Shown here: positions 4,761-64,000 of the stretch, piece after piece
Layout: each line of letters starts with the position of its first letter
How positions within the stretch are numbered: the first letter of the stretch is position 1
Assembly (NCBI RefSeq): GCF_026210795.1
Contig: NC_089448.1
Coordinates: 2,108,001 to 2,172,000 of the forward strand
Length of the DNA: 64,000 nt
DNA from: Rhizophagus irregularis
Taxonomy: Eukaryota; Glomeromycota; Glomeromycetes; Glomerales; Glomeraceae
Direction: 5' to 3'
Notes under the pieces: model-generated
What the model saw: only the letters and a program-made list of their open reading frames with translations
What the model was told of the DNA's origin: nothing
The model's database searches: none
Program-made: the position numbers and the translations under genes

Positions 4761-4761
4761 T

Positions 4762-7059: not shown

Positions 7060-10000
7060 TCAGAGTATTTCAGTTTTAACTAGAAATACCAAAATAATTA
7101 GTTTCATATCTTAAAAAAAATAATGATGTAAAATGTCATTAAAATTAATACTTACTGCAAAAATCATCAGAATCACAACTAGCTTGCACATTTGAGGCCG
7201 AAGTTGAACTATTATCTGAACGATAACTAATTTGAGATTCTGAATCTTAATACAAATTTTATCGTTAATAATCAGTAAATTATAACTTAATAAAACAAAA
7301 TTTATTAATATATAAACACATTACAAATACCTTTTCTTAATTTAATTCCAACAATCATCTTTTTAAATTCATTCAATACTTCCTTAATATCTGGCCTTTG
7401 TTCGGGCTCTTGCCTCCAGCAATTTTTGTAAAGATTTTCATATTCCTTAGGGGTATCGGGAACTGGAGTTTCTCGAATTCCACTAATAACAGAAATAGCA
7501 ACTGTTTTATTATCACAATCTTTAAATGGAGGTTCTCCACTGGAAATTTCCCACATTAATACACCAAAGCTATATATGTCTGAAGGTTTAGTATATTTGT
7601 AATTTGGATCTGATAAACGCTTTGGCTCAATATAAGAAGCAACACCAATAGTGCCAATAAAAGTTGTTGTATTATCTTGAATTTTTGAAATACCAAAATC
7701 TGTAATCTTAGCATTATCATCATGAATAACAATATTCTTTGAATGCTAAAATAAAAAAAAGTCAATGTTGACAATCAACAATAATTGCTATAGCAAATAA
7801 GAATAATACTTACAAGATCTCTATGTAAAATATTTTCGTTATGTAAATAATTTAATCCTTCTGCAATTTGAAATGCTAATTTTTTCTTATTATCCCAAGT
7901 TAATTTCTCAAAATTTTCTTTGAGATAATTTTGTAAATCACCACCATTAGCGTATTGCATTATAAGGAAATGATCATTCGTTTTTTGATCTAAATTAAGA
8001 AATTTATTAAAAAAATAATTATAATAATAAATATACGTAGTACAAATAACTTTTTAAATTACCAATACTAATGCCTAAGCAACGCACAATCCTTTCACTA
8101 TAATCAAGTCGCAAATGTATTTTTAATTCATGAATAAATTCGTCTAGTAAATCATGCTTTATGTTAGTTGCTTTAGTCAATTTTTTACAAATGACGTTAT
8201 CATTTAGTTTGTTCCAAATTGCTTTTGAAATTTGTCCAAACCCTCCTTGTTTAAATGATTCAACATTTTCTAATTCATTATAAGGTATCAATTTAATTTT
8301 TTCATGATCTATGGCATCTTCAATCCAATTTTTCGCATTGATTATATTTACATTTTCATTTTTTACTTCTTTAAAACATTCAAATACTAATTTAACATTA
8401 CCCTTTATCAATCCAGTTTCATCTTCTATATTATCTTGGTTTATTGCTGCTCTTTCATACCAATAATAAGCTTTTATTTCATCTTTTTCAATACCAATTC
8501 CTTTTTCATAGTAGAGATTAAGTTTCTTTTGTGCATAAACATATCCTTGTTCAGCTGATTTTTTAATCCATTCAAATGCTTTAACATCATTTTTATCAGT
8601 ACCTATTCCATTTTCATAATATAAACCTAAATTGTATTGCGCAACTTTATACTCATTGTTTGCCGAAATTTGATACCAATCAAAGGCTTTATGTTCATCC
8701 TTTTCAATTCCAATTCCTTTTTCATAACATAAGCCCAAGTTATATTGCGCATATTTATTTTCATCTGCTGCTTTTTGATACCAATAAAAAGCTTTAATTT
8801 CATCTTTTTTAATGCCAATTCCATTTTTATAATATGATCCTAAATTACATTGTGCATATTTATTTTCTTTTTCTGCTGCCTCTTGGTACCAATAAAATGC
8901 TTTTTCCAAATTTTTTTCAATTCCAATTCCATTTCCATAAAAAAAACCAAGTAGATTTTGTGCATCACTATGCCCTTGCTCAGCTGATTTTTCAAACAAA
9001 TTAAATGCTTTAAATTTATCTTTTTTAATATAACTTCCATCTTCACAGTATAAATCTAATAAACTGTATCGAGCAGATTCATTTCCATTTTCCTCTGCTT
9101 TTTGATACCAATAAAATGCATTTTCAAAGTCTTTTTCAACCAATTTATAAAAATCACCAAGCTCATTTTGTGCATTACTATATTCTTGTTTAGCTGATTT
9201 ATAAAACCATAAAACCGATTTAATTTCATCTTTTTTAGTGCCAACTCCATTTTTATAACACAAACCTAATTTGTATTGCGCATATTTATCTTTACTTTCT
9301 GCTGCTTTTTGATACCAAAAGAAAGCTGTATCCTCATCTTTTTTAGTACCAATTCCATTTTCATAAAAATGACCAAGTTTATTTTGTGCAAAACTATAGT
9401 CTTGTTTAACTAATTCTTTAATGTATTCAAATGCTTTAATCTCATTTTTTTCAATACCAATTCCATTTTCATAACATAAACCTAAATTATATTGTGCAAG
9501 TTCATTTCCATTTACTGCTGCTTTTTGATACCAATAAAAAGCTTTTTTCAAATCTTTTTCAACTCCATTTCCATTTTCATAAAAAAATCCAAGTTTATTT
9601 TGTGCATTAGGATATTCTTGTTTGGCTGATTTTTCAAACCATTCAAATGCCTTAACATTATCTTTTTTAATACTATTACCAATCCCTTTTTCGTAACATA
9701 AACCTAAATTATATTGTGCAAATTTGTTTCCACTTTCTGCTGCTTTTTGATACCATAATAAAGCTTCTTTAAAATTTTTCTCAGTACCAATTCCATTTTC
9801 ATAGAAATATCCAAGTTCATTTTGTGCATTACTATAATTTTGTTTGGCTGATTTTTCAAACCACAAAAGTGCCTTAATTTTATTTTTTTCAATACCAATT
9901 CCATTTTTATAGCATAAACCTAAATTATATTGTGCATTTTTATCTTTATTTCTTGCTGCTTTTTGGTACCAATAAAAAGCTCTAATTACATCTTTTTCAA

Positions 10001-11195
10001 CACCAATTCCATTCTCATAGAAATGACCAAGTCTATTTTGTGCAGTATTATGTTCCTGTTCTGCTAATTCTTTAATGTATTCAATTGCTTTTTGATACCA
10101 ATAAACAGCTTTAACTTCATCTTTTTCAATGCCAATTCCATATTCATAACATAAGCCCAAGTTATATTGTGCACATTTATTTTCATCTGCTGCTTTTTGA
10201 TACCAATAAAAAGCTTTAACTTCATCTTTTTTAATGCCAATTTCATTTTCATAACATAAACCTAAATTATATTGTGCAAATTTATTTCCATTTTCTGCTG
10301 CTTTTTGATACCAATAAAAGGCTTTAACTTCATCTTTTTTAATGCCAATTTCATTTTCATAACATAAACCTAAATTATATTGTGCAAATTCATTTCCATT
10401 TTCTGCTGCTTTTTGATACCAATAAAAGGCTTTAACTTTATTTTTTCTAATACCAATTCCATTATCATAACACAAGCCTAAATTATATTGCGCATCTTTA
10501 TCTTTTTCTGCTGCCTTTTCATAATAATAAAAGGCTTTAACTTCATTTTTTTTAATTCCAATTCCATTTTCATAACATATACCTAAATTACATTGTGCAA
10601 ATACATTGCCATTTTCTGCTGCTTTTTGGTACCAATAAAAAGCTTTGGCATCATCTTTTTCAATGCCAATTCCATTTTCATAAAATAAACCTAAATTATA
10701 TTGTGCAGATTCATTTCCATTTTCTGCTGCTTTTTGATACCAATGAAAGGCTTTTTCCAAATCTTTTTCAACTCCAAACCCATTTTCATAAAAAAAGCCA
10801 AGTTTATTTTGTGCACTAGTACATTCTTGTTTGGCTGAAATTTTATACAATTCAAATGCTTTTATAAAGTCCTTTTTAGTACCAATTCCATTTTCATAAC
10901 ATTTGCCTAAATTATATTGTGCAAATTTATTTTCGTTTTCTATTGCTTTTTGGTACCAATAAAAAGCCTTTTCTAAATTTTTTTCAATCTTTTCATAAAA
11001 ATTGCCAAGTTGATTTTGTGCACCACTATATCCTTGTTCAGCTAATTTTTTAAACAACTCAAGTGCTTTAGGAATATCTTGTTCGGTACTAATTCCAGTT
11101 TTATAATGCATGGCCAATTTGTACTGTGCATCTTCATTTTCTCTCGCTTCTGAATACTTATTAAAAACACTATTTTTTTTCTGTTCTTCAGTCAT
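7060..11195 (-). CDS. Sel1-repeat/protein kinase fusion, multi-exon
   Basis: Exon 1 (11195-8063) encodes about 26 Sel1 repeats of about 36 residues (consensus A-Q-Y-N-L-G-x-C-Y-x-x-G-I-G-x-x-K), then the kinase N-lobe: glycine loop QGGFGQISKA, lysine in VICKKL, helix-C Glu in FIHELKIH. A 73-bp intron (7990-8062) leads to exon 2 (7989-7814: hinge MQYANGGDL, then LHRDL). A 68-bp intron leads to exon 3 (7745-7331: HSKNIVI, intact DFG in ITDFGISK, APE-region variant YIEPKRL, C-lobe). Splice phases 1-0-1 keep the frame open. A probable exon 4 (7245-7156, Ser-rich tail) and a tiny last exon ending at 7060 are inferred from splice motifs only. Total about 1,277 residues. All catalytic residues are present, so this is probably an active kinase with a large protein-interaction solenoid. 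Start: first ATG of the open frame. Confidence 0.85.
8430..11100 (-). repeat. Tandem Sel1-coding DNA repeats, about 108-bp unit
   Basis: The Sel1 units of the overlying gene are also similar at nucleotide level, for example the repeated stretches encoding FYWYQKAA and YNLGLCYENGIG. Some neighbouring units, such as those around 10200-10420, are nearly identical, suggesting recent unit duplication or conversion. Confidence 0.8.
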
Positions 11196-12104
11196 TATTT
11201 AGATAGATAATTCAAATGATACTAAAATACAAATACAGTAATTATATACTTTGCAGAAACCTATTGATTTTGAAAAATATGGTAAAAATATTTTTAAAAT
11301 ATGATTGACATATTGCGTGTACATTTCTGTTAACTCTGTTGTAACTCGATAACGGCAATATGTTGAACATATGTTAAAAAACACATGATTAAAATATGTT
11401 TAAAATATGTTTACTATATATCAAAAATATGTCAAAATTTATGAAAAAAATGTGATATTTATATTTTTATTATATATCAAAAATATCATTATAATATATT
11501 GCAAGTAATACAATTTATTATATATTAAAAATACACTAAAATATTACAATTATACATTTTACATTGAAATTATAATAAAAACAAAACTATTATAATGCCT
11601 TCACTGCACAATTTTTGATTTGGATCATTGTGATTTATTCGCAAGGAAATTTCCAAGTCAAATCATGTGACTTCTGATTCTCCTTTCTGTACGACCCTCT
11701 CAATGATAAGGAAACAAAATTATTACTGTACTTTTTTGTATGTTCGCCATTCTCACATCTTATCTCCCTTTTGCAACTCTCCTGGTCACTTCCTTTCCAT
11801 CTCATTTGGAGGTCACACTTATTCTTCTGCGATTTTCTTCAGACTGTTAAATACTATAAGTTGCGGGTAGGATAATAAATAGTAGTAGTAATTAGTCTAG
11901 ATTTCTTGTATGATATTTTGCAATACACTGTAGGTTATTTTTATTAGTATATTTGCTTGTTTGTGGACGTGTAAATTTTCAATAAGTAATTTTATTTCTA
12001 TTTATACAATACAAGATGCTTGATCATTTAAAAAAAAAGTAAAGTCAAAACATTAGTAAGAAATTCGTTAAAGAAATAAAACCAAAGGAACTTCCAATAC
12101 TTAC

Positions 12105-30191: not shown

Positions 30192-33100
30192 CTAATCATT
30201 TTCATTCTTAATTGATGACCTATAAAAGAATTTAAAAATATTAATAATTATTTTTTAATAAAAAAAGACTTAAATAACATACTTTGTAAAATCAATCATT
30301 ACTGAATTATTATCACATTTTAAAAGATCTTTTGTATAAGGATTAAGTAAACGAGATGTATAATAAGCTTCTGGATGAGTAGTTAACTGGGTATTTTCAG
30401 TAGATAAAGGATTTGCCTTTCTATATTTTTCTGATTCATTAAATTGCTTTTTAATTTCCGTATCTCCATTATCATATTTATTATGGTATGAATTATGAAA
30501 AAGCTGAATAAACTCTTCCACTTTAGCAGCATTTGGTCTATTATTAGGATTTGGATCCCAACACTTTTTCATTAAGTCATTATAACATTTTGGTATTTCT
30601 GACTCATTTATTTCGGGTCTAATTCCATTACATATACTTGATGCTAGATATTGATCATGTGCATAATTGGAAAAAGGTTGTCTTTTGGTTGCCACAAAAT
30701 ACATGACCATACCAAAACTATATATGTCTGCCGCTTGAGTATAAGTATTTCCTCTTAATACTTCGGGAGCTACATAGGGCATAATTCCATAAATTTTTGT
30801 TTTATCTACATTACAAACTTCTCCACATAATCCCATATCTGAAATATATACAGTATGAGCACTACTACATAATATATTTCCTATATGAAAATCACGATGA
30901 ACCATCTGATTTTCATGAATTTTTTTAAGTCCATTAATAATTCCAATTAATAGTTCCAATTTATCTGGCCAATGATAAATCTTATTAATGTACTCATTTA
31001 AGTTTCCTTCACTTGCATATTTAAGAACTAATATATAATTTCCTGTATCTGGATTTTGAGATATCCCATATATTGGAAGAATATGATTAGTATCAAAGTG
31101 TTCTTCAATCGAATATGATTTAGCCTATTAATATAGTAAAAAGGAAATTATTTATACATTAAAAAAAGATGATAAAGATTATGAATAAATTTTATACCTC
31201 ATTTAAAAATTCATTAGTAATATTTTGTGAGTCATATAAGCATTTTAAAGCAACAGTTCGATTTAAATTTTTGTATCTTTCATATTTCTTTTCAGAAGCA
31301 TTATAATGTAATATATTATCTTCCCATTTTGCTGAATATACTGTGGCAAACCCACCTGTTCCTATTTCCTCAATATTATCAAACTGGTTGTAAGGTATCC
31401 ATTCAACTACTATATTATTAATACCATTAATCTTTAATTGCATTTCTTGAATGAAATTATCAATCTTTTCATTTTCACTGGTCCAGTTTACAAAATTTTC
31501 TTTTAAATTATTTATTTGACATGGTTTACACCACTTCTCTTTTATATCTGTATATATTTCAGCACATTTTTCACAATATCCATCTTGAAGCACTAAAATA
31601 TAATCATTTGTACTTGGATTTTGAGATATGCCATATATTGAAGGAAGATTATCAGAATATTTAATTGAATATGATTTAGCCTATTAATAAAAAAATATTA
31701 ATACACATTAATAAAAAGCATTTTAATTATGAAAACCATATACCTCACTTAAAATTTCATTTGTAATATTTTGTGAATTATATATGCATTTTAAAATAAC
31801 TCTTTTATTATTAGTTCTTATATATCCCTTTATAAATATAGCATCATCAAATTCCAATGGACCATCCTTCCATATTGCTAAATGTAATGTTCCAAACCCA
31901 TCTTTTCTTATTTCTTTAATATATTCAAACTGATGGTATGGCACCCATTCAACTACTGTGTCATTATAATTATCAATTTGTAATTGCATTTCTTGAGTAT
32001 AATTATCAATTTTCTCATTTCCACTGGTCCAATTTTCAAAAAATTCTTTTAAATCATTTATTTGACATAATTTACACCATCCATATTCTGGATTTGTATA
32101 CTGGTTACCACAATTTTGACAAAATCTATTTACAGAAACTATAATATAATCATTTGTATCTGGATTTTGAGATATTCCACATTTATTAGAATATGATTCA
32201 ACCTGTTATACATAAAAAATATCATTATATTATTATATTGAAATATTAAGTTGAATTTACATAAAAATCTTATACCTTATTTAAAAATTCATCAGTATTA
32301 TTTTGTGAATTATATAAATGTTTTAAAGAAACTTCAACATTGTCCTTCCATGTAGCTAAATGTAATGTTCCGAATTCATCTTTGCTTATTTGCTTAATAT
32401 CATTAAACTGATTATATGGTATCCATTCAAATATTTTTCTACTAACCCAACCCATTTTTAATTGCATTTCTTGATGAATAAAATTATCGATTTTCTCATT
32501 TCCACTAGTCCAGTTCACAAAATTTTCTTTCAAATCATTTATTTGACATAATTTACATAACTTATTTTTCGGTTCACTACTATATGATATATATAGTATT
32601 TCACCACATCTTTTACAATATACTTCTTGAAGTACCATAATATAATCTTTTGTATTTGGATTTTGAGATATACCATATATTTTAATATTATATTTATTAA
32701 GGTAATATGACTTAACCTTATTAAATATAAAAAAATTATTAATACATTAAATATATACAAATATTGAATTATATAAAATTAGCATACCTCATTCAAGAAT
32801 TCATCAATAATATTTTGAGAGTTATATATACATTTTAAAATAACCTTCTTATTATTAATTCTTATATATAAATTTTTATATTTATTATATTTTAATTGGC
32901 CATCTTTCCATAATGCTAAATGTAACATTTCAAATCCATTATTTTCAATTTTATTAATCTCATCAAATTGATCATACTATGGTATCCATTCAAGTACTAT
33001 ATCATAACAATGATCAATTTTTAATTGCATTTCTTGAATAAAATTATCAATTTTCTCATTCCCACTTTTTATACAAGCTTTTTTCAATTCATTCATTTGA

Positions 33101-34830
33101 CATGGTTTACACCATTTATGACATATTTGTGTATATTGATTACCACATTTTTTACAATATCCATCTTCAAAAACCATGATATAATCTTTTGTATCTGGAT
33201 CTTGAGATATTCCATATATTTTAAGGGCATCACCAGAAAATTTTTTAATTGAGTATGAATTTATCTATTAGTTAAATATAGTAAGAAAATTATATTAAAA
33301 AAAAAAATATTTAAAAAGAAGCTTCATACCTCATCATTTAAAAATTGATTATCAATATTTTGTAGATATTTTAAAGTAACCTTCTTATAATTATTATATG
33401 ATTTCCGCTTATATGTCTCTTTATTGCCTTTATAATATAATGGACCATCCTTCCATATTGCTAAATAAATTGTAACAAAACCATCATTTTTTATTTTTTC
33501 AATATTATCAAATTGATTAAATGGTATCCATTCAAATATTATATCTTCACATCCATCAATCTTTAATTGCATTTTTTGAACAATATTATCTATTTCTTCG
33601 CTTCCACTTTTTATACAAACTTTGTTCAATTCATTTATTGAACATTGTTTACACCAATTAAGTTTCTTATAATGCACGTACTCATATATATATTTATCAC
33701 CACATTTTTTACAACATGCACCTTTAATAACAATAATATAATCCTTTGTATTTGGATTTTGAGATATTCCATATATTTTAAAAAAAATTTCACATATATT
33801 AAAGGAATCAGTAGGAATAATAGAGCATATTTTAATCTATTAAATAAACAAATTTATTAGTCAAAAAAAATTTAAATTAAATTTAAACAAAAGATTCATA
33901 CCTCATTTGAAAATTCATCAATGATATTTTGTGAGTTGGATAAAAATTTTAAAGCTACTTTTATATTATTAATTCTTGTATATTCCTTTTTATAATGATC
34001 ATATTCTAATGGACCACTTTTCCATACTGCTAAATATACTGTAACAAAATCACTTTTATCTATTTCTTTTATTATATCAAACTGATTATATGGTATCCAT
34101 TCAAATATTATATTATGATACCTATTAATATCTAATTGTATTGTTTGAATAAAATTATCAATTTTTTCATTTTCACTAGTCCAGTTTCCTAAATTTTCTT
34201 TTAAATTAATTATTTGACAAGGTTTACACCACTTCTTTTTTATATCTGTATATATTTCACCACACTTTTCACAATATCCATCATAAAGAACCATGATATA
34301 ATCTTTTGTTTCTATATTTTGGGATATTCCATATATATAAGGAATATCAATACCATATCTTTTAATTGAAAATGACTTAACCTATTAAATATAGTAAGAA
34401 AATTATTATTATACTAAAAAAAAAAGCATTTAAAAAAGAAATTTCATACCTCATTTAAAAGTTCATTGGTAATATTTTGTGAATTATACAAATATTTTAA
34501 AGTAACTTTTTTATTTGGACATGTTTTTTTATATATCTGTTCATATTCATCATAATATAATGGACCATCTTTCCATATTGCAAAATTTACTGTAGCTTTA
34601 CCTATTTCTTTAATAATTTCAAGCTGATCATATGGTATCCATTCAAATACTGTATCATTATAATAACTAATTTTTAATTGCATTTCTTGAACAAGATTAT
34701 CAATTTTTTCATTTTCACTAGTCCAGTTTCTAAAATTTTCTTTCAAATTATTTATTTGACATGGACCACACCATTCATGGTGACATGCCTTGTCACATTT
34801 TTTACATAGATTTATATTTTCATCATACAT
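30192..34830 (-). CDS. Kinase gene with seven tandem zinc-ribbon/N-lobe exons
   Basis: Nine exons: 34830-34450, 34381-33902, 33836-33330, 33264-32788, 32716-32276, 32202-31744, 31680-31198, 31124-30283, 30219-30192. The first seven are all multiples of three and split in phase 0. Each holds a C-x2-C...W-C-x2-C zinc ribbon, a linker (NWTSENEKIDNFIQEMQL), EWIPYNQF and a kinase N-lobe ending NITNEFLNE. Exons 2-7 also begin with the strand region normally found after the N-lobe (IYGISQNPDT). Exon 8 carries the only C-lobe: VHRDFHIGN, DMG instead of DFG, APEVLRG; exon 9 ends SSIKNEND. Only the seventh N-lobe has a normal glycine loop (GTGGFATVYSA) with VALK; the others are degenerate. Spliced length would be 1,365 residues, but exon 4 has an in-frame TAG (32977-32979). 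Alternative choice or skipping of cassettes would keep frame. Confidence 0.8.
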
Positions 34831-37039: not shown

Positions 37040-39325
37040 ATGGCTCATAGTAACGATAAAGGTAAAATAACATATAACATGAATATTTAATATAAAATAA
37101 AATTATTCTAAAATTTTTAATCAAATCAATCGAATTGCAATAAGTTTCAAGTGGCACCAAGGAATCTGAAGGTAAATATAATATATTTACAAGCTAAATT
37201 TATGTAATAGCGTAATATTAACATATTAAATAATTTAGCTCGTAAGTTAATAGGTTAAATAATAATAGTATTACTTATTTATGTTATATTCCATATAACT
37301 AAATAATTCATTTAATGATTCATAATACTATAGTTAGTAAGTTATCAGCTGTTTCCTTTACTTTATTTTACATGATATTCAAATAATTAATTTTTGTATA
37401 AATAACTACTTAATAATTAATTATACTATAGATGATAAGTTACAATATTTAATAAATTATTATATTGATTTGTTTAACGCTAATATTTTATTTTTTTAAA
37501 TGATTAAGCTGTAAGTGATATATTTCCATTTAATCGGATTATACTCTAGTAAGTTATAAGTTATTTACTAAATTTATTGTTGCATATTCACATAATATTT
37601 ACATAATGTAAGTTAAAAGTAATCTATCATTACATATGAAATAATTTATTAATCGCACGTGCGATTTCATCGGCTACCCTTTGTCACCTGTGTCGCACCC
37701 TTGGTAATTTATTTTAGCTGGTAAATTACAAGCTATTTATTTCATTCTATTATTACATATTTATATAACATTTTTATATAATTGATAACTAAATTCTTTA
37801 TTTAAAAATTATTTGATAATTTATTTTAGAACGTAAGTTATAAGTTATTTCTTTAATTTATTATTACATAATATTTACATATATTTAAACTAATTAAATT
37901 TTTTATTTAAAAAATTATTTGGTAATTTATTTTAGACCGTCGTAAGTAATATAGTTATTTATTTAATTCTAGTATTATATAATTTTAACTACTAATTAAA
38001 TCCTTTATTTAAAAGATGAATTACTTAGTAATATAGCTCGTAAGGTTATTTTTGTGTATATATAATTATATATTATACAAAAACTAAGGTTATATTTTAT
38101 TAAATCCTATTTAAGAGTAAGTATTGATATTAGTTTTTCTTTTAAAAAAAATCTTAAATTTTGATATAAATTTTAATATAAACTTAATTTATATATAGAT
38201 TTGGAAAAAGTGGAAATGAAACTATGGATGAATTTATTTCTGAAAAACAATTAAAATGGATTCCTTATAATAAATTGAAAAATGTTGAATTTCTTAATGA
38301 AGGAAAATATAATACTATATACAAAGCTATTTAGTTAAATAATGATGGAGACAGGGAAGTAATTCTTCAATGCCACAATAATTTAAATGAAGATTTAAAT
38401 GAATTTTTAAATGAAGTATGATAGTATAATACTTATTTTTTAATTTAAATTATAATTTATTTATACTAACACATTTATTATTTTTTTTTTATAGTGGGAA
38501 TACCATGAAAGTTGTTTATATTCATATGATATTATTGATTTTTATGGATTTACAAAAGTTCCAAATACTTCGAATTATATGGTAGTAATGGATTATGCAA
38601 ACAAAGGTAATTTGAGAGTAAATTTACCAAAAATTATCATAAATGATTGAAATCAAAAATTACAAATGTTATATGAAATTATTTCTGGGCTTAATAATAT
38701 GCATAAAAAAAATCTTATTCATTGTAATCTTCATGATGGCAATATTTTAAATCATGGGGGTAGGTATGAAGGTAAAGTTTATATTAGTGATTTTAGACTA
38801 TGTCAACCTGTAAGCTTATTTTTGAAAAAAAATGATATTCGTGGTGTTATACCATTTATGGCACCTTAAGTTTTAAAAGGCAATTCTTATACTCCGGCTA
38901 GTGATATTTATAGTTTTTCTATGATTATGTGGGAATTTACATCTGGAGTACCACCATTTAATAATAGAGCACATGATCTTCAACTTAGCTTAAGTATATG
39001 TAAAGGGGAACGTCCTGAAATTATTGAAAATACTCCCCAATGTTTAGATTTGATGAAAAAGTGTTGGAATGAAGATTCATTAAAAAGACCATCTTCTGAT
39101 GAAGTTTTTGATATTATTGAAAAATGGATTATTCTTCCTAATGGAAAGAAAGCTGAAGATACTGATGATGAATTAAAATGCAATGTTATGGAATTTATAA
39201 ATGCACCAATTGGGCATAATAATTTTGCTACTAAATCTCATTCACAAGCATATTATACAAATCGTTTACATAATTTTACTAGTAAAGAATTGAATGAAAT
39301 TCTTGAAAGTGATCTTAGTTTGTAA
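37040..39325 (+). pseudogene. Kinase pseudogene with three stop codons
   Basis: Two exons are clear: 38199-38415 (ending NEFLNE before GTATG) and 38495-39325 (WEYHES onward), joined in phase 0. The single reading frame is interrupted by TAG at 38332-38334 where Trp would fit (YKAI-stop-LNN), TGA at 38648-38650 (IIIND-stop-NQKL, Trp again plausible) and TAA at 38867-38869 in the APE motif (MAP-stop-VLKG). The lysine motif reads VILQC (Lys to Gln), HRD reads HCN and DFG reads DFR, so catalysis was lost as well. The C-terminal tail (SQAYYTNRLHNFTSKEL) matches the neighbouring kinase family. Two possible 5' mini-exons at 37040-37061 (MAHSNDK) and 37145-37171 are followed by a 1-kb intron. Confidence 0.8.
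37230..38045 (+). other. Array of juxtaposed acceptor/donor motifs
   Basis: Eight to nine degenerate units of about 100 bp, each with TTATTTTAG- or ATAG-like sequence followed within 0-7 bases by GTAAGT/GTAAAT, for example TTTTAGAACGTAAGT and TTTTAGACCGTCGTAAGT. It lies in what would be the large first intron of the kinase pseudogene. No coding potential. Confidence 0.45.
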
Positions 39326-48937: not shown

Positions 48938-50719
48938 TCATTTACTCATCGGTGTATGGTAAGTCTTTAATAATTCTCCATTTACAGGTATCTTCTTGAT
49001 GACACCTTTAATATTTTTAATTCTATAAGCTCCATTCGGTAGTATTTCATGAATGTAAAATGGTCCCAACCATTTTGATTCTAATTTTCCCGATAGTTGT
49101 TGTGCTTTGGCTTTATCATAGAGTAGTATTTTATCTCCAATTCCAAAGGTGTGTTCTTTGATTATTTTTCTGTCATGATACTCTTTTTGTTTTGTTTGAG
49201 ATTTCAGTATTTGTTCTTTGGCTTCATGTCGGATTTTTGGTAGTTCTTCTAATAATCCAACTATTCTATCACTTAGGTTAATTTCTTTGATATTTTCATA
49301 CATTATTGTCCGTACATTTCTTCCGTATGTTAAATAAAATGGTCGAATTTTTGTTGAACTATGCTTTTTATTTCGGTAAGCAAATAATATGGGTGCTATC
49401 CTTTGGTCCCAATCATCTTTGGTTGATAATTTCGCTAATGCTTGACCTAATGTTCGGTTGAATCTTTCAACAAGTCCATTTGTCTCTGGATGATAACTTG
49501 TAGAAAAATTCCATTTAATTTTGAATTTTTCCATTAATTCTTTAATCATTTCATTATTGAAATGACTTCCTCTATCACTCAATATTTTCATTGGACATCC
49601 ATGTCTACAAATGATGTCTTCATAAATAAATTTTGATACTTCTTTGGCAGTTGCTTCCTTTACTGCTTTGGCTTCTGGCCATTTTGTAAAATAATCCATT
49701 GCTACTATGATGTATTTATTACCATTTGTTGTCGTGTTCAATGGTCCAACAAAGTCAATCCCGATTTGATACCATGGTTCTACTACTTTAATTGGGTGTA
49801 ATTCATTTTTCCCTTGTGGTTTTCCTCTTCTTTGACATTCATCGCATGTCCTTACATATCTTTCAACATCATTCAGCATATTTTCCCAATAATATTTATC
49901 TTTTAAATTATCATAAGTACTTTTGATTCCCATATGTGCCGATAATTCATGACTGTGAGCTAAATATAGTGCTCCCATCTTTTCAAAGTCTTCTATTATT
50001 CTGATGTTTTTACCATCTTTCTCAATATGCTTTTTACCATCAGTTACTCTGATGTTATCCTTAATCTCAACATTTTTAACCTCTATTGGTGGTTTATCTC
50101 CATCTAATTCTATTACTTTATTATATACTCTTTCCCAATCTGTGTCATTATTCGATATTTTAATATTAGCATATTTTTCTCCTTCGTAAATATCTTGACA
50201 TTCTTTAAATGATTTCACCATCTCCATATATCTTTCTTCATCTAATAGTGGGTATGATGTTTTATGTCCTTGATCCTTTTTCGAATATTCTCTACCTTTG
50301 TAATTTTCCCAACATTTTTCATTTTCTAAAAATATCACTATTGATTCATCAATTATCCTTTTGTTCCTAAATACTTCCTTTTCTAATAGGTGGTTCTCAT
50401 ATCTTGTTATGTATCCTCTGTCGAATGATGGTGTTTGTTGATAAAAGTACTCACTATAGGGACTTTTATCTAATATTAACCAATCCTCATTATCATGTTC
50501 TTCCATTCTCCTGTTGATTTGTTCGACAACTTCCTTCCTGAATTCCCATTCTATACCTTTCTTTGGTATTTTATACTTATCATTGTCCTCTCTTCTCCTT
50601 TTAAAGGTGTTAAACCTCACACTTTGTCCTACTTTTTCAAATTCTTTTATAAGTTTATTTACAATGAATGTTTTTCCAGTACCATCAACTCCACATATGA
50701 TTATTATTTTAGGTCCCAT
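48938..50719 (-). CDS. Thymidylate-kinase-like domain fused to integrase
   Basis: 593 residues. Residues 1-205: P-loop nucleoside/nucleotide kinase. Walker A is GVDGTGKT (10-17), with the DG characteristic of thymidylate kinases; LDKSPYSEYFYQQ (83-95) matches the position and spacing of the DR[YH]-S-YQ nucleoside-binding motif; a basic stretch at 140-153 could be a lid. Residues about 250-593: retroviral-type integrase, with HHCC zinc finger (H257, H262, C292, C295), catalytic D322, D382 and E418, and the GPF/Y motif at 552-555 (GPFYIHEILPNG). The start overlaps the end of the preceding 79-codon frame by 11 bases. In ordinary Ty3 elements integrase is continuous with RNase H and has no kinase. 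Inferred role of the kinase: local nucleotide supply for reverse transcription. TMPK versus deoxynucleoside kinase cannot be settled here. Confidence 0.9.
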   Translation of the reverse strand: MGPKIIIICGVDGTGKTFIVNKLIKEFEKVGQSVRFNTFKRRREDNDKYKIPKKGIEWEFRKEVVEQINRRMEEHDNEDWLILDKSPYSEYFYQQTPSFDRGYITRYENHLLEKEVFRNKRIIDESIVIFLENEKCWENYKGREYSKKDQGHKTSYPLLDEERYMEMVKSFKECQDIYEGEKYANIKISNNDTDWERVYNKVIELDGDKPPIEVKNVEIKDNIRVTDGKKHIEKDGKNIRIIEDFEKMGALYLAHSHELSAHMGIKSTYDNLKDKYYWENMLNDVERYVRTCDECQRRGKPQGKNELHPIKVVEPWYQIGIDFVGPLNTTTNGNKYIIVAMDYFTKWPEAKAVKEATAKEVSKFIYEDIICRHGCPMKILSDRGSHFNNEMIKELMEKFKIKWNFSTSYHPETNGLVERFNRTLGQALAKLSTKDDWDQRIAPILFAYRNKKHSSTKIRPFYLTYGRNVRTIMYENIKEINLSDRIVGLLEELPKIRHEAKEQILKSQTKQKEYHDRKIIKEHTFGIGDKILLYDKAKAQQLSGKLESKWLGPFYIHEILPNGAYRIKNIKGVIKKIPVNGELLKTYHTPMSK

Positions 50720-50948
50720 TTTTACATAATTCTGATAATTTTAGCTTGTTTACTTTACTTAATATCACCTCTATTTGTAATATTTCCTCTTGAGTTTCCA
50801 ATATTAATGGTCTTTCTTCACTATCTTCAAAATTTTTGGCTTTGAATTTATAGTTATAATTTATCCTGTTTAATTCCTTTGTTATACCTTCTAAATTTTC
50901 GATTATATCCTTTATTTTATGATTTGTATTTCTTACCACTTGTTCCAT
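50709..50948 (-). CDS. Small charged protein between RNase H and integrase frames
   Basis: 79 residues (MEQVVRNTNHKIKDIIENLE ...), charged and probably helical or coiled-coil, no known domain. It lies 36 bases after the RT-RNase H stop, in that same frame but behind two stops, and overlaps the kinase-integrase start by 11 bases in another frame (AAAAATGGGACCTAA contains both the ATG and the stop). It may couple translation to the next frame. Confidence 0.55.
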   Translation of the reverse strand: MEQVVRNTNHKIKDIIENLEGITKELNRINYNYKFKAKNFEDSEERPLILETQEEILQIEVILSKVNKLKLSELCKNGT

Positions 50949-50984
50949 TTTTATTTTTGAAAAGTGACTCTTTTACCCATCTAT

Positions 50985-52466
50985 TTATATTATTCTTGAT
51001 AAGGCATCTGCATTTTTATTTTCTTTTCCTGGTCTATGGGTTATTTCAAAATCATACTGTTCCAATTCCATGACCCATCTTGATCTCTTTCCTTTTGGTA
51101 CTTTTGCAGTCATTAATCCCTTCAAAGCTGCATGGTCTGTTACTACCTCAAATTTTCTATTGATCAAGTATTTATGGAAATGTTGTATTCCCCATACAAT
51201 TGCATAACATTCTTGTTCGGTTATTGGCCATCTTTGTTCTGTCCTGTTTAAACTTTTACTGGCATATTCTATTACATATTCTTGACCTTTATCATCTTTT
51301 TGAGCTAACACTGCCCCTAATCCTATTCCTGAAGCATCTGTAATTAATATAAATTTCCTTAACCAATCTGGTTGTCTTAACACCGGTTCTTCGGTTAATT
51401 TCCTTTTTAATATTTCTAATGCTTCATGTTGTTTGATGCCCCATTCAAACTTTTCATCTTTTCTCAATAAAGATGTTATTGGTTTTACTATTTTTGAAAA
51501 ATCTTTAATAAATTTTCTATAATACGTACATAACCCTAATATTGACCTTACACCTTTTATATTTATAGGTGCTGTTAATTTTTGTATCTTTTCAACCTTT
51601 CCTGGACTTGGTTTTAATCCATTCTTACCAACTACATGTCCTAAAAATTCTATTTCTGTTTTCCCAAATATACATTTCTTTAACTTTAGTATTAAACTGG
51701 CTTCCTTTAATTTTTCTAACACTAACTTTATGTGTTTTAGGTGGTCTTCAAAATTTTCCGAATATATCATTATATCATCAATGTATACTATCACAAATTC
51801 ATTTAGGTACTCCTTTAATACTTTATCCATTAACCTTTGAAAACTTGCAGGTGCATTTGTTAACCCAAATGGCATGACATTATATTCATATAATCCTGCT
51901 GAGCATATGAATGCTGTTTTCTCAATATCTTCCTCAGCCATTTCTATCTGATTAAACCCTGATGCTAAATCTAGACTGGTAAACCATTTTCCTGAACTTA
52001 TCCTTTCTAATTGTTCATCAATCCTCGGTAATGGATATGCATCTGTTATTGTAACTTTATTTAATTTTCTATAGTCGATGCAAAATCTATAATTTCCTGA
52101 CTTTTTCCCTGCTAAAGTCACTGGTGAAGACCATGGACTTCTAGATTCTCTAATTTTTCCCAATTTTAACATCTCGTCAACCTCTTTTCTGATGAATTTA
52201 CCTTTTTCATCATTTTCTTTGTACCTCTTTTGGGCTATTGGTTCAGTACCCCCTTTTAATCTGATTTCATGTTTTACTAGGTTTGTCCTATTATATTTTT
52301 CACCATCGTACTCAAATATATCCTTATATTTTTCTACTAATACTTTTAATTTACCTTTTTGTTCATTGGTTTGGTCCCCTACTTTAAATTTTTCAGTAAA
52401 TTTTTCATGGTCACTTTTGTGCTTCTTTATCGTCTCTTCAGTATCATTCTGACCAAGACTTATACT
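50985..52466 (-). CDS. pol: Reverse transcriptase and RNase H (pol)
   Basis: Open frame of 493 residues without an ATG near its start; the first Met is at 52172. RT motifs: PWSSPVTLAGKKSG, the LDLASGF aspartate, LTNAPASFQRLM and YIDD (VIVYIDDIMIY). RNase H of the Ty3 type follows: ILITDASGIGLGAVL, ITEQECYAIVWGI and C-terminal HRPGKENKNADALSR. The frame opens at 52466 just after a stop (52467-52469) and is in the -1 frame relative to the protease, whose stop is 52460-52462, so the two overlap by only a few bases. It ends with TAA and integrase is not continuous with it, which is unusual for the family. Confidence 0.93.
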   Translation of the reverse strand, partial: SISLGQNDTEETIKKHKSDHEKFTEKFKVGDQTNEQKGKLKVLVEKYKDIFEYDGEKYNRTNLVKHEIRLKGGTEPIAQKRYKENDEKGKFIRKEVDEMLKLGKIRESRSPWSSPVTLAGKKSGNYRFCIDYRKLNKVTITDAYPLPRIDEQLERISSGKWFTSLDLASGFNQIEMAEEDIEKTAFICSAGLYEYNVMPFGLTNAPASFQRLMDKVLKEYLNEFVIVYIDDIMIYSENFEDHLKHIKLVLEKLKEASLILKLKKCIFGKTEIEFLGHVVGKNGLKPSPGKVEKIQKLTAPINIKGVRSILGLCTYYRKFIKDFSKIVKPITSLLRKDEKFEWGIKQHEALEILKRKLTEEPVLRQPDWLRKFILITDASGIGLGAVLAQKDDKGQEYVIEYASKSLNRTEQRWPITEQECYAIVWGIQHFHKYLINRKFEVVTDHAALKGLMTAKVPKGKRSRWVMELEQYDFEITHRPGKENKNADALSRII

Positions 52467-52987
52467 TTAAAATTTTCATCTTCCTGACCTTCATGGTCAT
52501 CTTCATATATGTTATACAATTCATCCTGGTATAATTCTTCTAATATTTCCTCTTCATCAAATGTTTCTTCAAACCCTTTAATGGTCCTTTGTGTGTATTT
52601 TACTGGTATATCCATAGTTTCATCATTCATTCTAATTATTATTGTTTTATCTGTGTAATCTATATTCGCCTTAAACATATCTAATACTCCATTTCCTAAC
52701 ACAATTTCGTTTTTTCCTGAATCAATTACTTCAACCTTAATGGGTATTTCCTTATCCCCAAATTGTATGTATATTGTCGTGGTACCCCTAGATGCTAATT
52801 TATCCTCATTTATCATCACACATCTTACTGTACTTGGTTCCTCAATTTTTAGGTCCATTTCATCCATTATCTGACTAGTAATTACATTTACTGCTGCTCC
52901 TGTATCAAACATTACGTCCTTTAATTCTTGGTTTATTATTAATTTACCTCTTAATGCAGTTAAATGTTCTGCTTCAATGTTGTTCAT
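52460..52987 (-). CDS. Retropepsin-like aspartic protease
   Basis: 175 residues. The catalytic motif MFDTGAAVNVIT places Asp28-Thr29-Gly30 as in retroviral-type pepsins, followed by a beta-rich body (VEVIDSGKNEIVLGNGVLDM) including the second hydrophobic-Gly element. The C-terminal third is acidic. The ATG is in the same frame as Gag, four codons after the Gag stop, so it is probably made as a Gag-Pro readthrough product; independent initiation cannot be excluded. Confidence 0.85.
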   Translation of the reverse strand: MNNIEAEHLTALRGKLIINQELKDVMFDTGAAVNVITSQIMDEMDLKIEEPSTVRCVMINEDKLASRGTTTIYIQFGDKEIPIKVEVIDSGKNEIVLGNGVLDMFKANIDYTDKTIIIRMNDETMDIPVKYTQRTIKGFEETFDEEEILEELYQDELYNIYEDDHEGQEDENFKV

Positions 52988-52999
52988 TGATTCTTGTAG

Positions 53000-55900
53000 T
53001 CAATCTGTTTGTGGATACCTTCTCATACCATCATAATATATTTTTCTTTGTTCTGGGCTCATATCTATAATTTGTGAAAAAGTTGCATTTGCTCTGGTAC
53101 TTTTCATATCCTCTAATACGTTATATTTTGGTATATTTCTTTGAAATGCGCTTGTCCTATGAATACCTTCAACACGTTCATTTTTACATTGTTTTGCATA
53201 GTGACCTCTTTGTCCACAATTTCCACATGTATTATTATTTCTCCTTGCTTCTTGTGCTTTCCTCAGACTTTCGTCAGTGAATCCTCTTTTTGGTAATGCT
53301 GCTGCCCTTTCCTCTTGGCTTGCATATTTATCATTCCTTCTTCGTGTTTGTTCTTGATCAATTTCCATATCTATATCTCGATTACTTGACCTATTTTTTA
53401 TGTTACTTCTCGTTTGTCTTTCACCAATATAAAAATCTTGATCAACATGGTTAAATGTTACATCATTATCTTGATAATACGGGTCGTCATAACTATATCC
53501 TTGGTCATAATTATCCTGATAATCCTGACTATCATAATCATATTGGTCATATTGGTCATTATAATTATCATATTCCACTACATTGAATCCTCGATTATTG
53601 TTTTGGTGGTTTGGTGGTCTGTTATAGTTATTTGGTCTTCCATTATAGTTATTTGATCTTCTATTATAATTTTGATTATTTGGTCTTCCATAGTTTCTTT
53701 GACCATTATTTACCCTACATTCATTTGCATAATGTCCTGGTTGTTTACAATTATAACATGCTCGAGGTGGTGGTCCTTGTCTATTATTATTGTTTGGTGG
53801 TCTCTTTTGCCCTCCAAGTTGATTTACTAGTTTTACCTCTAATTTTTTAAACATGTCGGCAAGGTCATCCTCATAATTTTTCTCCAATGGTTTTTCAAAT
53901 ATATTCTTTGGTTTGTCATCTTGTATATCGATTCCTTTTCTTTGGGTACTAACTGATATACCACGTGTCTTTCTTATTAATTCATTAGTAGCTTCCTCTT
54001 CTCTTCTTGCTGTATTCACTGCATCATTTAAATTTGCTGGGTTTTGTCTTCTGACTTGATATCCCAATGTTGGTGTTAATCCTTCGATATAATTATCCAC
54101 TTGTAATTCATCATCTAATGCATGGCCTCTGGTAGCTATCCTTAATATTTGTCTAAACCTTATCGTATATGCCTCAACATTTTCATTTACTCCTTGTGTT
54201 ATTTTCCTTAATTCTAACATTTTCCTTTTTCTAACATCTTCCCTGGTAAATCTTTGTTTAATCCTATGTTTTAAATCATTATCATTATCGTTATCTTGCC
54301 AATTTACCAAATGACCATTGTTTGCTTCCTTCTTTTCATTATACCATTGTGCTGCTGCACCTTTCAAACAGGTAGCTGCCATTGCTGCTTGTCTAGCTCC
54401 ATTTACTCCTGCTGCTTTTCCTATGGCAGTAAATGCTGTTTCAAATTGTCTTACCCAATCGTTTATGTCTTCTTCTTCCCTTCCATAAAATTGTGGCATA
54501 CTAATTATTCCTCCAGCTACATTTCCTGCATCCTCAATTGCATTTGCTAATGGGTTGGCTGCGACTAATCCAGCCCAATTACCTCCTATATCATGTCCCG
54601 TTGCTGCTAGTAAAGCCGCTCTAAAATCTTCCCTTACTTCAGCTCTTGTTGCTCCCATAATTATTGGTACTATTGGTGGGATTGGTGGTATCGGTGGTGT
54701 TAAAGGTGTTTCAAATAAATTTTCTATATTATAATCAGATATTTCACTTTTATCCTCAGAATTTGATTCTGAACTTTCACTTGAGTCAAAACCAGGTCTA
54801 TTTATAATGTTTTCTTCATAAGGTTCTTCAAAATTTTCATTGCTATCGGTATTATTTGGATTTAAAATTTCTCCATTTTTTTCAGATCCATCTGATTCTT
54901 TTTCAGATCCATCAGATTTTTCGTTATCAGATTCATTTCCACTACTTTCACTATCTTCAGTTCCAGCTTGCTGTTTTAGAAATTTATCTAATATCCATTT
55001 CAAATTTTTCTCCAAATCATTTTTATTTCCTTGGAATATTTCAATAAATTCTTGATCCAATATTTCTCCATCAGTATATCCCATACTGATTAACCTCAAT
55101 AACTCTCCATCAGTTATTTCTACTCTAGTTTCATCACATATTTGTTTTAATCTTTTGACCCTGATATCAATTTCATTTTCGTCATTTTCACAATCCCTAC
55201 ACTTGGTTTTTCCTTCGTCAAATTTATTGTTTATCCATCTTATTCCACATTCATTACAAAATGTAGTATTTTCATTCATCCATTCGTATAATTTTATCTT
55301 TAATTCTTTATCATCTGAATCAATTTCTTGAAAATATTTTTCCATGAATTCCATCGTTAATATTATGCTATTGCTTATCCTTAACTCCTTTATTCTCCTT
55401 GTCTCTAAAATATCTAGTTCATATCCTAATTTTTCTAAATCATCTTTTAATTCTAATACCTCGGTTAACTCACACTTTCTACATTGTTGTGAATCTTCCA
55501 TCATATCAGGTAATTTTTTGTTTCCACAATCCTTACATGTTAATGTTTCCCTTATTAACCATTCATTTATCTCATCTTTCAATTTTTCATCACTTAGTCC
55601 CATTAATTCGAAAAATGTACCTAAAAAGTCCTCTGTTAATATCAATTCTATCCTTATCCTTAGGTCCCACATTCTTTGTATATCTTTGTCGGTGAACCTT
55701 CCACCCATTTCTTCAATTTTTCTTTTTAATGATTCCACTGTCCATTCGACATCATCCTCTATTTTTATTTCATAATGTATACTACCATCACTGTCCTCTA
55801 ATTCATAACTTTCAGGACTAGCACTCTCTGGGTCTTCAGGTTCCCTTGTAAATTGTTTGGTGTCAATAAATCTTTGTAACACTTTCTGTATCAATCTTTC

Positions 55901-56584: not shown

Positions 56585-56750
56585 TTTTAATAAAATTCTC
56601 TAAAAATTTTCACGTCTTTTACTTTTTATCCTTCTTTTATATTTTATTTGACCTATACTGGGCTTGCCTTTACCTCATTTGTTCATTACTGAGTATGGTA
56701 GTTTACAGGTTTGTACAAATAAATTTATATTTTTCCTTAAAATTCCCAAC

Positions 56751-62793: not shown

Positions 62794-64000
62794 TTAATCA
62801 TTTTCATTCTTAATTGATGACCTACAAAAGAATTTTTTAAAATATTAATAATTATTTTTTAATAAAAAAAAGACTTAAATGAATATAACATACTTTGTAA
62901 AATCAATCATTACTGAATTATTATCACACTTTAAAAGATCTTTTGTATAAGGATTAAGTAAACGAGATGTATAATATGCTTCTGGATGAGTAGTTAACTG
63001 AATATTTTCAGTAGATGAAGGATTTGCCCTTATATATTCTTCTGATTCATCAAATTGCTTTCTAATTTCCTTATCTCCGTTATATACATTATATGAATTA
63101 TTATAAGAATTACAAAAAAGTTGAATCAACTCTTCCACTTTAACAGCATCTGGTCTATTCTTAGGATTTGGATCCCAACACTTTTTCATTAAGTCATTAT
63201 AACATTTTGGTATTTCTGACTCATTTATTTCGGGTCTAATTCCATTACATATACTTGATGCTAGATATTGATCATGTGCATAATTGGCAAAAGGTTGTCT
63301 TTTGGTTGCCACAAAATACATGACCATACCAAAACTATATATGTCTGCCGCTTGAGTATAAGTATTTCCTCTTAATACTTCGGGAGCTACATAGGGCATA
63401 ACTCCATAAATTTTTGTTTTATCTACATTACAAACTTCTCCACATGATCCCATATCTGAAATATATACAGTACAAGTACCACTACATAATATATTTCCTA
63501 TATGAAAATCACGATGAACCATCTGATTTTCATGAATTTTTTTAAGTCCATTAATAATTCCAATTAATAGTTCCAATTTATCTGGCCAATGATAAATCTT
63601 ATTAATGTACTCATTTAAGTTTCCTTCATTTGCATATTCAAGAACTAATATATAATTTCCTGTCTCTGGATTTTGAGATATCCCATATATTGGAAGAATA
63701 TGATTATTATTATTAAAGCATTCTTCAATTGAATATGATTTAGCCTATTAATATTGTAAAAAGGAAATTATTTATACATTAAAAAAGATGATAAAAGATT
63801 ATGAATAAATTTTATACCTCATTTAAAAATTCATTAGTAATATTTTGTGAGTCGTATAAACATTTTAAAGCGACTGTTAAACGATTTGGATTTTTGTATC
63901 TTTTATATTCCTTTTCAGAAGCATTATAATGCAATATATCATCTTTCCATTTTGCTGAATATACTGTGGCAAACCCACCTGTTCCTATTTCCTTAATATT
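62794..64000 (-). CDS. Kinase, 3' part, paralogue of the N-lobe array gene
   Basis: Three exons visible: 64000-63818 (partial; N-lobe with intact loop GTGGFATVYSA and VALKCLYDS, ending NEFLNE), 63744-62894 (IYGISQNPETGNYILVLEYA, VHRDFHIGN, DMG for DFG, APEVLRG, C-lobe and tail), and 62821-62794 (SSIKNEND then stop TAA). Introns are 73 and 72 bp with the same phases as in 30192-34830, and the exon sequences are very similar, differing for example at CSGTCTVYISDMGSCG versus CSSAHTVYISDMGLCG. The gene continues beyond the window, so whether it also has repeated N-lobe cassettes is not visible. Confidence 0.88.

What the first reader, a model, noticed from the sequence alone, without database searches (positions are those of the whole stretch)
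30192..34830. Kinase gene with seven exchangeable N-lobe cassettes before one C-lobe
Seven consecutive exons each encode a zinc ribbon, linker and kinase N-lobe, all with lengths divisible by three and phase-0 borders, before a single exon with the catalytic C-lobe. The cassettes are diverged, and only the last keeps a normal glycine loop. Splicing all would give a protein with a string of mini N-lobes; mutually exclusive splicing or alternative starts would swap the zinc ribbon and N-lobe on a constant C-lobe, a possible diversification system comparable in logic to cassette exons in immune receptors.
Basis: partly seen in the sequence, partly recalled or inferred. Interest (0 to 1): 0.9.

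Follow-up and report, generated by a model that had tools for sequence, protein, structure and literature searches.

The report
Kinase genes with repeated half-kinase domains
In a root-symbiotic fungus many protein kinase genes carry a row of repeated, partly decayed copies of the kinase's upper half (each with a zinc-binding knuckle) in front of one working kinase; the evidence favours one long chain protein with a changeable number of repeats over a set of swappable parts, and the copy in this window looks broken.

Summary
The seven-cassette array is real, on the minus strand, in a Rhizophagus irregularis genome. Corrections: each internal exon holds beta4-beta5 of the PREVIOUS N-lobe, then zinc ribbon, linker and beta1-alphaC of the next; exon 4 has an in-frame TAG; a small ninth exon ends the deposited model. 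The layout is widespread: 20 fetched loci plus the window hold 21 arrays of 3-9 cassettes; 116 of 118 resolved introns are phase 0. Deposited Rhizophagus and Glomus proteins reach 16 cassettes, mostly before one C-lobe. Usually only the cassette next to the C-lobe keeps a glycine loop (last 16/19, middle 1/81, first 0/21), and last cassettes resemble other last cassettes (16/17). Middle exons keep the beta4-beta5 motif, useful only if exons are chained. Exon joining reproduces three deposited proteins almost letter for letter, and the deposited model of this gene joins cassettes in order. AlphaFold models show N-lobes in series. Exchange by mutually exclusive splicing is therefore not supported; a poly-N-lobe kinase whose cassettes change at DNA level is. 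No RNA reads were examined, dN/dS is weak, alternative starts are not fully excluded, and deposited models carry unexplained extra introns inside cassettes. The window copy is probably defective; its paralogue 33 kb away is open throughout.

The parts
34450..34830 (-). Exon 1: ATG, zinc ribbon, linker, beta1-alphaC (cassette 1); no beta4-beta5 part; degenerate G-loop
   Evidence: same exon in deposited model P0006
33902..34381 (-). Exon 2: beta4-beta5 of lobe 1, then zinc ribbon-linker-beta1-alphaC of cassette 2
33330..33836 (-). Exon 3: beta4-beta5 of lobe 2, then cassette 3
32788..33264 (-). Exon 4: beta4-beta5 of lobe 3, then cassette 4, interrupted by an in-frame stop
   Evidence: deposited model P0006 starts this exon at 32976, just after the stop
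32977..32979 (-). In-frame TAG in cassette 4, one extra codon relative to the paralogue
   Evidence: L009 exon 4 has no stop; position
32276..32716 (-). Exon 5: beta4-beta5 of lobe 4, then cassette 5
   Evidence: borders; my model put its start six bases further in
31744..32202 (-). Exon 6: beta4-beta5 of lobe 5, then cassette 6
   Evidence: P0006 has an extra intron inside it
31198..31680 (-). Exon 7: beta4-beta5 of lobe 6, then cassette 7, the only one here with a canonical glycine loop (IGTGGFATVY)
   Evidence: P0006 has an extra intron inside it
30283..31124 (-). Exon 8: beta4-beta5 of lobe 7 and catalytic C-lobe (HRD..N, DMG, APE); open frame runs on to a stop at 30270
   Evidence: Pfam PF07714 E 1.3e-33; end by deposited model
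30192..30219 (-). Exon 9: short C-terminal tail SSIKNEND and stop, after a 63-nt phase-2 intron
   Evidence: deposited model P0006; stop read
62875..63744 (-). C-lobe exon of the paralogous seven-cassette gene; its cassettes run beyond the window end
   Evidence: L009
63818..64000 (-). 3' part of the last cassette of the paralogue (continues outside the window)

Best explanation
The locus is a copy of a poly-N-lobe, TKL-like kinase gene. In the intact members the exons are most likely spliced in order, giving one protein: [zinc ribbon + linker + degenerate N-lobe] repeated, then one intact N-lobe, then one C-lobe. Each N-lobe is built from two exons: beta1-alphaC from one, beta4-beta5 from the next. 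Because nearly every border is phase 0 and lies at the same point of the fold, whole units can be gained, lost or exchanged by recombination without breaking the frame. Only the lobe next to the C-lobe binds ATP and catalyses; the upstream lobes act as a repeated binding, scaffold or autoinhibitory region, plausibly the recognition part. Shown by sequence: architecture, phase, position of the G-loop, recurrence, block sharing. Inferred: chain splicing in vivo, which lobes bind ATP, the recognition role. The window copy carries a stop in cassette 4 and is probably truncated or decaying unless that part is spliced out; the paralogue is open throughout.
For: Same layout in 21 arrays of 3-9 cassettes; 116 of 118 resolved introns phase 0, median 72 nt, one further junction unresolved. 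Glycine loop: last 16/19, middle 1/81, first 0/21; in listed deposited proteins 97 of 109 and 68 of 91 last lobes against 3 of 822 and 0 of 182 non-last. Nearest neighbour of a last cassette is a last cassette of another array in 16 of 17. Beta4-beta5 motif in middle exons: second-position difference 0.05 against third-position 0.234; the G-loop of middle cassettes is unconstrained (0.37/0.35/0.29) and that of last ones constrained (0.10/0.13/0.23). Of 20 joined models, three equal deposited proteins over the protein's full length: L023 (100%), L024 (100% of 903 aa), L022 (99.9%); six more match at 96-100% with gaps or only in part; eleven had no hit of 90% or more. The deposited model of the window gene joins all cassettes in order: five border introns identical to mine, one with an acceptor six bases off, one using the TAG as acceptor. 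AlphaFold models show N-lobes in series. A 3.15-kb block, 98.5% identical, is shared by neighbouring arrays L025/L026; P0016 and P0031 differ by one cassette.
Against: No RNA junction was seen; deposited models are predictions whose support per junction is unknown. Pooled NG86 dN/dS in middle cassettes is 1.05 (0.87-1.29) for the whole beta4-beta5 segment, 0.67 zinc ribbon, 0.54 linker, 0.71 beta1-alphaC, so purifying selection is not strongly shown that way (AT bias may depress dS; my reading). Window gene against paralogue gives 0.86 for the C-lobe exon. P0006 and P0229 carry extra in-frame introns inside cassettes. L027 breaks the rule: its last cassette lacks and its second has a G-loop. 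Of 20 joined models seven count internal stops: the window (cassette 4), L018 (one), L013 (14; its C-lobe lies in two frames), and one each in the C-lobe exons of L011, L021, L024, L025, some of them probably natural ends overrun by my extension. L010 and L026 show no C-lobe in the fetched stretch. Loci were chosen by strong hits, which favours good arrays.
Confidence: 0.75

Rival explanations
1. Exchangeable cassettes: mutually exclusive splicing or alternative starts place one of seven zinc ribbon/N-lobe cassettes on the constant C-lobe.
For: The borders are phase 0, so any cassette can be joined in frame to exon 8. 11 of 200 deposited proteins have a cassette tagged degenerate next to the C-lobe. 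A Met lies upstream of the ribbon in 29 of 81 middle and 5 of 19 last exons.
Against: G-loop nearly locked to the last position; conserved beta4-beta5 motif at the start of internal exons; no excess pairing between introns (z from -0.4 to 6.1 in six arrays, positive meaning weaker than mononucleotide shuffles); the intron lengths allow each to splice singly (inference).
Confidence: 0.08
2. Dead upstream cassettes: only exon 7 to exon 8 makes a functional kinase and the upstream cassettes are silent, degenerating duplicates.
For: G-loops of non-last cassettes are unconstrained; window cassette 4 has a stop; dN/dS near 1 in parts.
Against: Of 81 middle cassettes 79 keep two CxxC, 67 a VxLK, 65 the final Glu, and 2 hold a stop; the beta4-beta5 motif is constrained at protein level; chains recur in deposited proteins of four species.
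Confidence: 0.1
3. Chain protein with splicing variation: the chain is made, but optional in-frame introns inside cassettes, or skipping of single cassettes, give several chain lengths, removing zinc ribbons or G-loop regions. Compatible with the best explanation.
For: Deposited P0006 (window gene) has four extra in-frame introns in exons 5-8 and skips half of exon 4; P0229 (L024 gene) has one extra in-frame phase-1 GT-AG intron in each of four cassettes, while P0091 of the same gene has none.
Against: These may be gene-prediction noise; one P0006 intron removes the catalytic core of the C-lobe. No reads examined.
Confidence: 0.25
4. Assembly or modelling artefact.
For: Arrays of similar repeats are hard to assemble (general knowledge).
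Against: Cassettes are well diverged, the layout recurs in deposited proteins of several species and records, and three deposited proteins agree almost letter for letter with the mechanical chains.
Confidence: 0.01

Closest known systems
Expanded kinase repertoire of Rhizophagus irregularis (PMC8647823 and PMC10234402, passages only; 2,533 kinase genes in the latter)
   Same: Same organism, high-copy kinase genes
   Different: The passages seen treat kinases as a class and do not mention repeated N-lobes before one C-lobe; the label TKL is recalled
Plant tandem kinase proteins (e.g. Yr15, Pm57, Lr9; PMC11153570, passages)
   Same: A kinase fused to kinase-derived domains that have lost catalytic motifs; for Lr9 the pseudokinase and vWA domains are proposed there as integrated decoys
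   Different: There two kinase domains are joined; here mainly the N-lobe with a zinc ribbon is repeated, up to 15 times, before one C-lobe
JAK-type pseudokinase-kinase pairs (recalled)
   Same: Catalytically silent kinase-fold region upstream of an active kinase
   Different: Complete pseudokinase domain, single copy
Fungal NLR/HET receptors with shuffled WD40/ANK/TPR repeats (PMC10197012, passages)
   Same: Sensor built of repeats that recombine within and between genes
   Different: Here the repeat is a kinase N-lobe and the output part is a kinase
Dscam-type mutually exclusive exon arrays (recalled)
   Same: Tandem diverged exons of one phase
   Different: No docking/selector pairing found among introns; only a 3' constant part; the last exon differs in kind

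Membership tests
TKL-like eukaryotic protein kinase | Kinase domain matching PK_Tyr_Ser-Thr/Pkinase with HRD, DxG and APE motifs | tested here: met
   C-lobe exon PF07714 E 1.3e-33; HRDFHIGN, SDMG, APE read; profile of 22 relatives hits solved RIPK1, MAP3K7/TAK1, roco4, CTR1 and B-Raf kinases; their TKL label is recalled
TKL-like eukaryotic protein kinase | Glycine loop, VAIK-type Lys and alphaC Glu in the N-lobe next to the C-lobe | tested here: met
   Last cassette: G-loop 16/19, VxLK 18/19, final Glu 19/19
TKL-like eukaryotic protein kinase | Phosphotransfer activity | not testable with these tools
   no experiment
Mutually exclusive exon system (Dscam-like) | One exon of the array per transcript | not testable with these tools
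   no RNA reads; deposited models chain the exons
Mutually exclusive exon system (Dscam-like) | Competing docking/selector RNA pairs | tested here: not met
   intron duplex energies not below shuffles in six arrays; only introns tested, mononucleotide shuffles
Mutually exclusive exon system (Dscam-like) | Exons equivalent in function at one slot | tested here: not met
   G-loop confined almost wholly to the last cassette; last cassettes group together
Plant tandem kinase protein | Two complete kinase domains, one often pseudokinase | tested here: not met
   184 of 200 listed deposited proteins with a C-lobe give one C-lobe hit, 16 give two, not examined further; a second kinase was seen in L027, other arrays were not scanned for one
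NOB1-type zinc ribbon | Match to PF08772 above cut-off | tested here: inconclusive
   window cassettes 7 and 2: E 0.005 and 0.034, both below the cut-off; PF08772 is precomputed for some relatives

The most novel reading that the evidence does not exclude
The arrays are a fast-evolving recognition repertoire: strings of decayed N-lobes act as sensors or decoys, one intact RIPK-like kinase is the output, and cassettes are shuffled by recombination between arrays. In one array (L027) the C-lobe exon continues in the same reading frame into an MLKL-type four-helix domain (Pfam MLKL_N, E 1.1e-8, above cut-off) and a second kinase, hinting at a RIPK/MLKL-like self-recognition or cell-death pathway; but L027 is also the array that breaks the G-loop rule. 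Optional in-frame introns inside cassettes could add splicing diversity.
Probability: 0.22. Interest if true: 0.9.

Novelty: new variant of a known kind. Interest (0 to 1): 0.68.

Why it matters
A kinase N-lobe used as a tandem repeat, up to 15 decayed copies before one working kinase, would be an unusual way to build a large repeat protein from half of an enzyme fold. It gives a concrete reading of part of the kinase expansion of arbuscular mycorrhizal fungi, makes cassette number and block exchange measurable among isolates, and offers a testable candidate for a recognition repertoire in these fungi.

Tried and rejected
Exchange by mutually exclusive splicing: rejected as main reading. A contrast I first meant to use, that first exons start with Met and internal ones do not (20/21 against 0/100), is worthless: my models begin first exons at an ATG and internal exons at a splice site by construction. 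It is dropped, and the odds of exchange were raised from 0.07 to 0.08 and of the best reading lowered from 0.76 to 0.75 for that reason. dN/dS by NG86 is a weak instrument here, since dS looks saturated by AT-rich codon use; its results against my reading are given. Counting all arrays: only lower bounds, because each search scores 150 of more than 4,000 candidates. Rows dropped before the array count: arrays of fewer than three cassettes (in one search a two-cassette one in L014, a one-cassette gene in L026, and the window's edge and fragment hits). Literature: ten searches (two found nothing) gave listings in which I saw no description of repeated N-lobes; passages of four papers were read. 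That is not proof that none is in print. Further fold searches were not made: the one run hit ordinary kinases. L014 and L018 have one phase-1 junction each, and L014's deposited relative is 33 residues longer, so these junctions are probably mis-modelled; L013's C-lobe hits lie in two frames. Some tags are loose (P0131 and P0196 were tagged near-canonical but do not look so).
Full report
What is there. The window is G000:C20:2108001-2172000 of a 146.7-Mb, 32-contig genome. The deposited protein OCT59_013059 of Rhizophagus irregularis (P0006, contig 3,821,099 bases; C20 here is 3,820,000) maps exactly on this locus, and the published DAOM197198 nuclear assembly is 146,773,001 bp (PMC10234402, passages). 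I take the window to be that strain; this is inference. On the minus strand, exons 1-7 and the C-lobe exon are joined in my models by seven GT...AG introns of 63-77 nt, all phase 0. The deposited model has a ninth small exon.

Register. The repeat unit does not coincide with a domain. The intron falls after the Glu of F-L-N-E, which I read as the alphaC glutamate (recalled motif). Every exon from 2 to 8 opens with beta4-beta5 (YGISQNP..DYI.VL) of the preceding lobe; exons 2-7 go on with the zinc ribbon, linker and beta1-alphaC of the next. Exon 1 lacks the beta4-beta5 part. In chain splicing each lobe is completed by the following exon, and the last lobe by the C-lobe exon.

The window copy. 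Exon 4 has an in-frame TAG, one codon more than the paralogue. The paralogue (C-lobe at 62875-63744, remainder in L009) has seven cassettes and no internal stop over 1,361 residues in my model. The deposited model of the window gene avoids the stop by using that TAG as a splice acceptor and dropping the first half of exon 4. Another deposited model, under the name DAOM 181602 (given as equal to DAOM 197198), P0148, begins in exon 4 a few residues after it, which suggests, without proof, that the stop is not an error of this assembly. Window against paralogue, exons 2-7: dN/dS 0.27 for beta1-alphaC, 0.95 for zinc ribbon plus linker, 1.11 for the beta4-beta5 segment; C-lobe exon 0.86, as expected if a copy is under relaxed constraint.

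A widespread class. In 20 stretches chosen because they held strong hits, plus the window, there are 21 arrays with three or more cassettes (three to nine, 121 in all); 19 show a C-lobe in the fetched stretch. 116 of 118 resolved introns are phase 0; one more junction was unresolved. Two whole-genome searches gave 198 distinct cassette places in 89 clusters (gap up to 2.5 kb), 53 with at least two and 33 with at least three; 62 of 89 have one of 150 listed C-lobe exons within 4.5 kb (coordinates copied by hand). These are lower bounds, since each search scored 150 of over 4,000 candidates. In one search, 149 of 150 scored places had no stop; the exception is cassette 4 here.

Defects. Seven of 20 fully joined models count internal stops: the window, L018 (one), L013 (14) and one each in the C-lobe exons of L011, L021, L024 and L025; in L011, L024 and L025 it lies near the end, where my extension probably ran past the true stop. 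Two of 81 middle cassettes hold a stop. L010 and L026 show no C-lobe in the fetched stretch; for L026 the stretch ends close by.

Other species. The chain query found 472 proteins, 120 listed, from R. irregularis, R. clarus and Glomus cerebriforme; the single-cassette query 1,233, 120 listed, adding R. diaphanus. Of the 240 listed, 200 have a C-lobe hit (16 of them two); none has a cassette hit after the C-lobe; cassette number reaches 16.

Position rule. Canonical glycine loop in fetched arrays: last 16/19, middle 1/81, first 0/21; two of the three last-cassette exceptions are near-canonical, the third is L027, which also supplies the one middle cassette with the loop. In listed deposited proteins: last 97/109 and 68/91; non-last 3/822 and 0/182 (a slightly looser motif). 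Of 200 last lobes there, 165 were canonical, 13 tagged near-canonical, 11 truncated hits, 11 degenerate (loose tags). Last cassettes group on a tree: 5 changes against a shuffled mean of 17.9, 9 against 17.9 with the G-loop columns removed; the nearest neighbour of a last cassette is a last cassette of another array in 16 of 17 (window, L025 and L026 left out). Related sequences inflate such contrasts.

Constraint. Mean differences at codon positions 1/2/3 among middle cassettes (window left out) are 0.16/0.05/0.234 in the 16-codon beta4-beta5 motif, 0.37/0.35/0.29 in the G-loop; in the G-loop of last cassettes 0.10/0.13/0.23. So the beta4-beta5 motif of middle exons is kept as protein while their G-loops are free. 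The alphaC-beta4 loop is unconstrained in middle (0.45/0.38/0.31) and last (0.41/0.37/0.34) exons. Pooled NG86 ratios (37 independent pairs of middle cassettes) are 1.05 (0.87-1.29) for the whole beta4-beta5 segment, 0.67 zinc ribbon, 0.54 linker, 0.71 beta1-alphaC; for last cassettes (9 pairs) 0.82, 0.45, 0.66, 0.47. These do not show strong purifying selection; I give more weight to the codon-position contrast, but the evidence is mixed.

Chain splicing. Of 20 joined models, nine had a deposited best hit of 90% identity or more: L023 (P0113, 899/899, 100%), L024 (P0091, 903 aa, 100%), L022 (P0058, 1198 aa, 99.9%) over the deposited protein's full length; L014 and L016 at 97% and 96% with gaps; L017, L020, L026 and L028 against shorter deposited models. 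P0006, the deposited model of the window gene, has the seven border introns in order: five as in my model, one with an acceptor six bases off, one with the TAG acceptor. The annotation in PMC10234402 used Illumina and Nanopore RNA reads (passages), but support per junction was not seen. Against exchange: a YGIS-type motif is present in 75 of 81 middle and 17 of 19 last exons with a strict motif, and precedes the ribbon in 80 and 19 with a loose one; intron pairs show no excess pairing. Alternative starts are not excluded by Met content: 29 of 81 middle and 5 of 19 last exons have a Met before the ribbon.

Unexplained. Deposited P0006 has extra introns of 216, 198, 120 and 339 nt inside exons 5-8, the last removing the HRD-DMG core. 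Deposited P0229 of the L024 gene has extra phase-1 GT-AG introns of 180, 312, 234 and 201 nt, one per cassette, while P0091 of the same gene has none. All are multiples of three. P0001, a relative of the paralogue, also lacks pieces inside cassettes (by eye). They may be gene-prediction noise or optional in-frame introns; only reads can tell.

Structure. AlphaFold2 of P0140 (two cassettes, 22 rows) has mean pLDDT 75.3, pTM 0.66; the degenerate cassette forms linker helices, strands, alphaC and two closing strands, with one strand fewer than the active lobe. P0113 (four cassettes, 15 rows; the deposited protein equal to my L023 chain) has mean pLDDT 73.1, pTM 0.55, with four lobes of like make-up in series and one C-lobe. 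Lobe-lobe arrangement is not reliable at this pTM. Foldseek's best solved matches to the P0140 model are RIPK1 and other kinases.

Turnover. L025 and L026, neighbouring arrays, share 3,155 columns at 98.5% identity across cassettes while their other matches are 75-80%. P0016 and P0031, two R. irregularis records, match cassette by cassette at 94-100% except that P0031 lacks cassette 4; two pairs of R. clarus records differ in number too (16 against 10, 11 against 8), one pair does not (9 and 9). These may be DNA differences or annotation differences.

Function. Upstream lobes lack the loop that holds ATP phosphates (recalled role) but usually keep the Lys (67/81), the Glu (65/81) and both CxxC (79/81). 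I infer non-catalytic N-lobes used as binding or regulatory beads. L027 carries, in the same open frame after its C-lobe, an MLKL_N domain (E 1.1e-8, above cut-off) and a second kinase; its C-lobe reads LRD and DMK, so it may be inactive, and it breaks the G-loop rule. That single case, with the RIPK1 similarity, is the ground for the bold reading in the section on the most novel reading. Other arrays were not scanned for such a domain.

Verdict. Observation essentially right with three corrections; exchange interpretation not supported; a widespread poly-N-lobe kinase class is supported at sequence level.

Noticed in passing
window 48938-57458 (-): Gypsy-like retroelement ORFs (gag, protease, RT/RNase H, integrase); in the integrase ORF a P-loop-like stretch (AAA_28, E 5e-5, below cut-off) precedes the integrase zinc-binding domain.
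   Followed up: no
window 18148-20447 (+): Kinase gene whose N-terminal part weakly matches MLKL_N (E 2.9e-4, below cut-off); a further kinase-like ORF follows at 19287-20447.
   Followed up: no
window 8019-11198 (-): Long ORF with 24 matched Sel1 repeat stretches.
   Followed up: no
window 38525-39301 (+): C-lobe fragment of the same kinase class with two in-frame stops and no cassette hit.
   Followed up: no
L027, C-lobe exon of the array at oriented 3987-6884: After the C-lobe the same open frame continues into an MLKL_N four-helix domain (E 1.1e-8) and a second kinase.
   Followed up: partly
window 30564-32979 and L024 3084-4905: Deposited models place extra in-frame GT-AG introns inside cassettes, removing zinc ribbon, linker or G-loop parts.
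   Followed up: partly
L025 3533-6679 and L026 1115-4268: Neighbouring arrays share a 3.15-kb, 98.5% identical block of cassettes.
   Followed up: partly
L010 4623-5938: Three-cassette array without a C-lobe hit in the fetched stretch.
   Followed up: no
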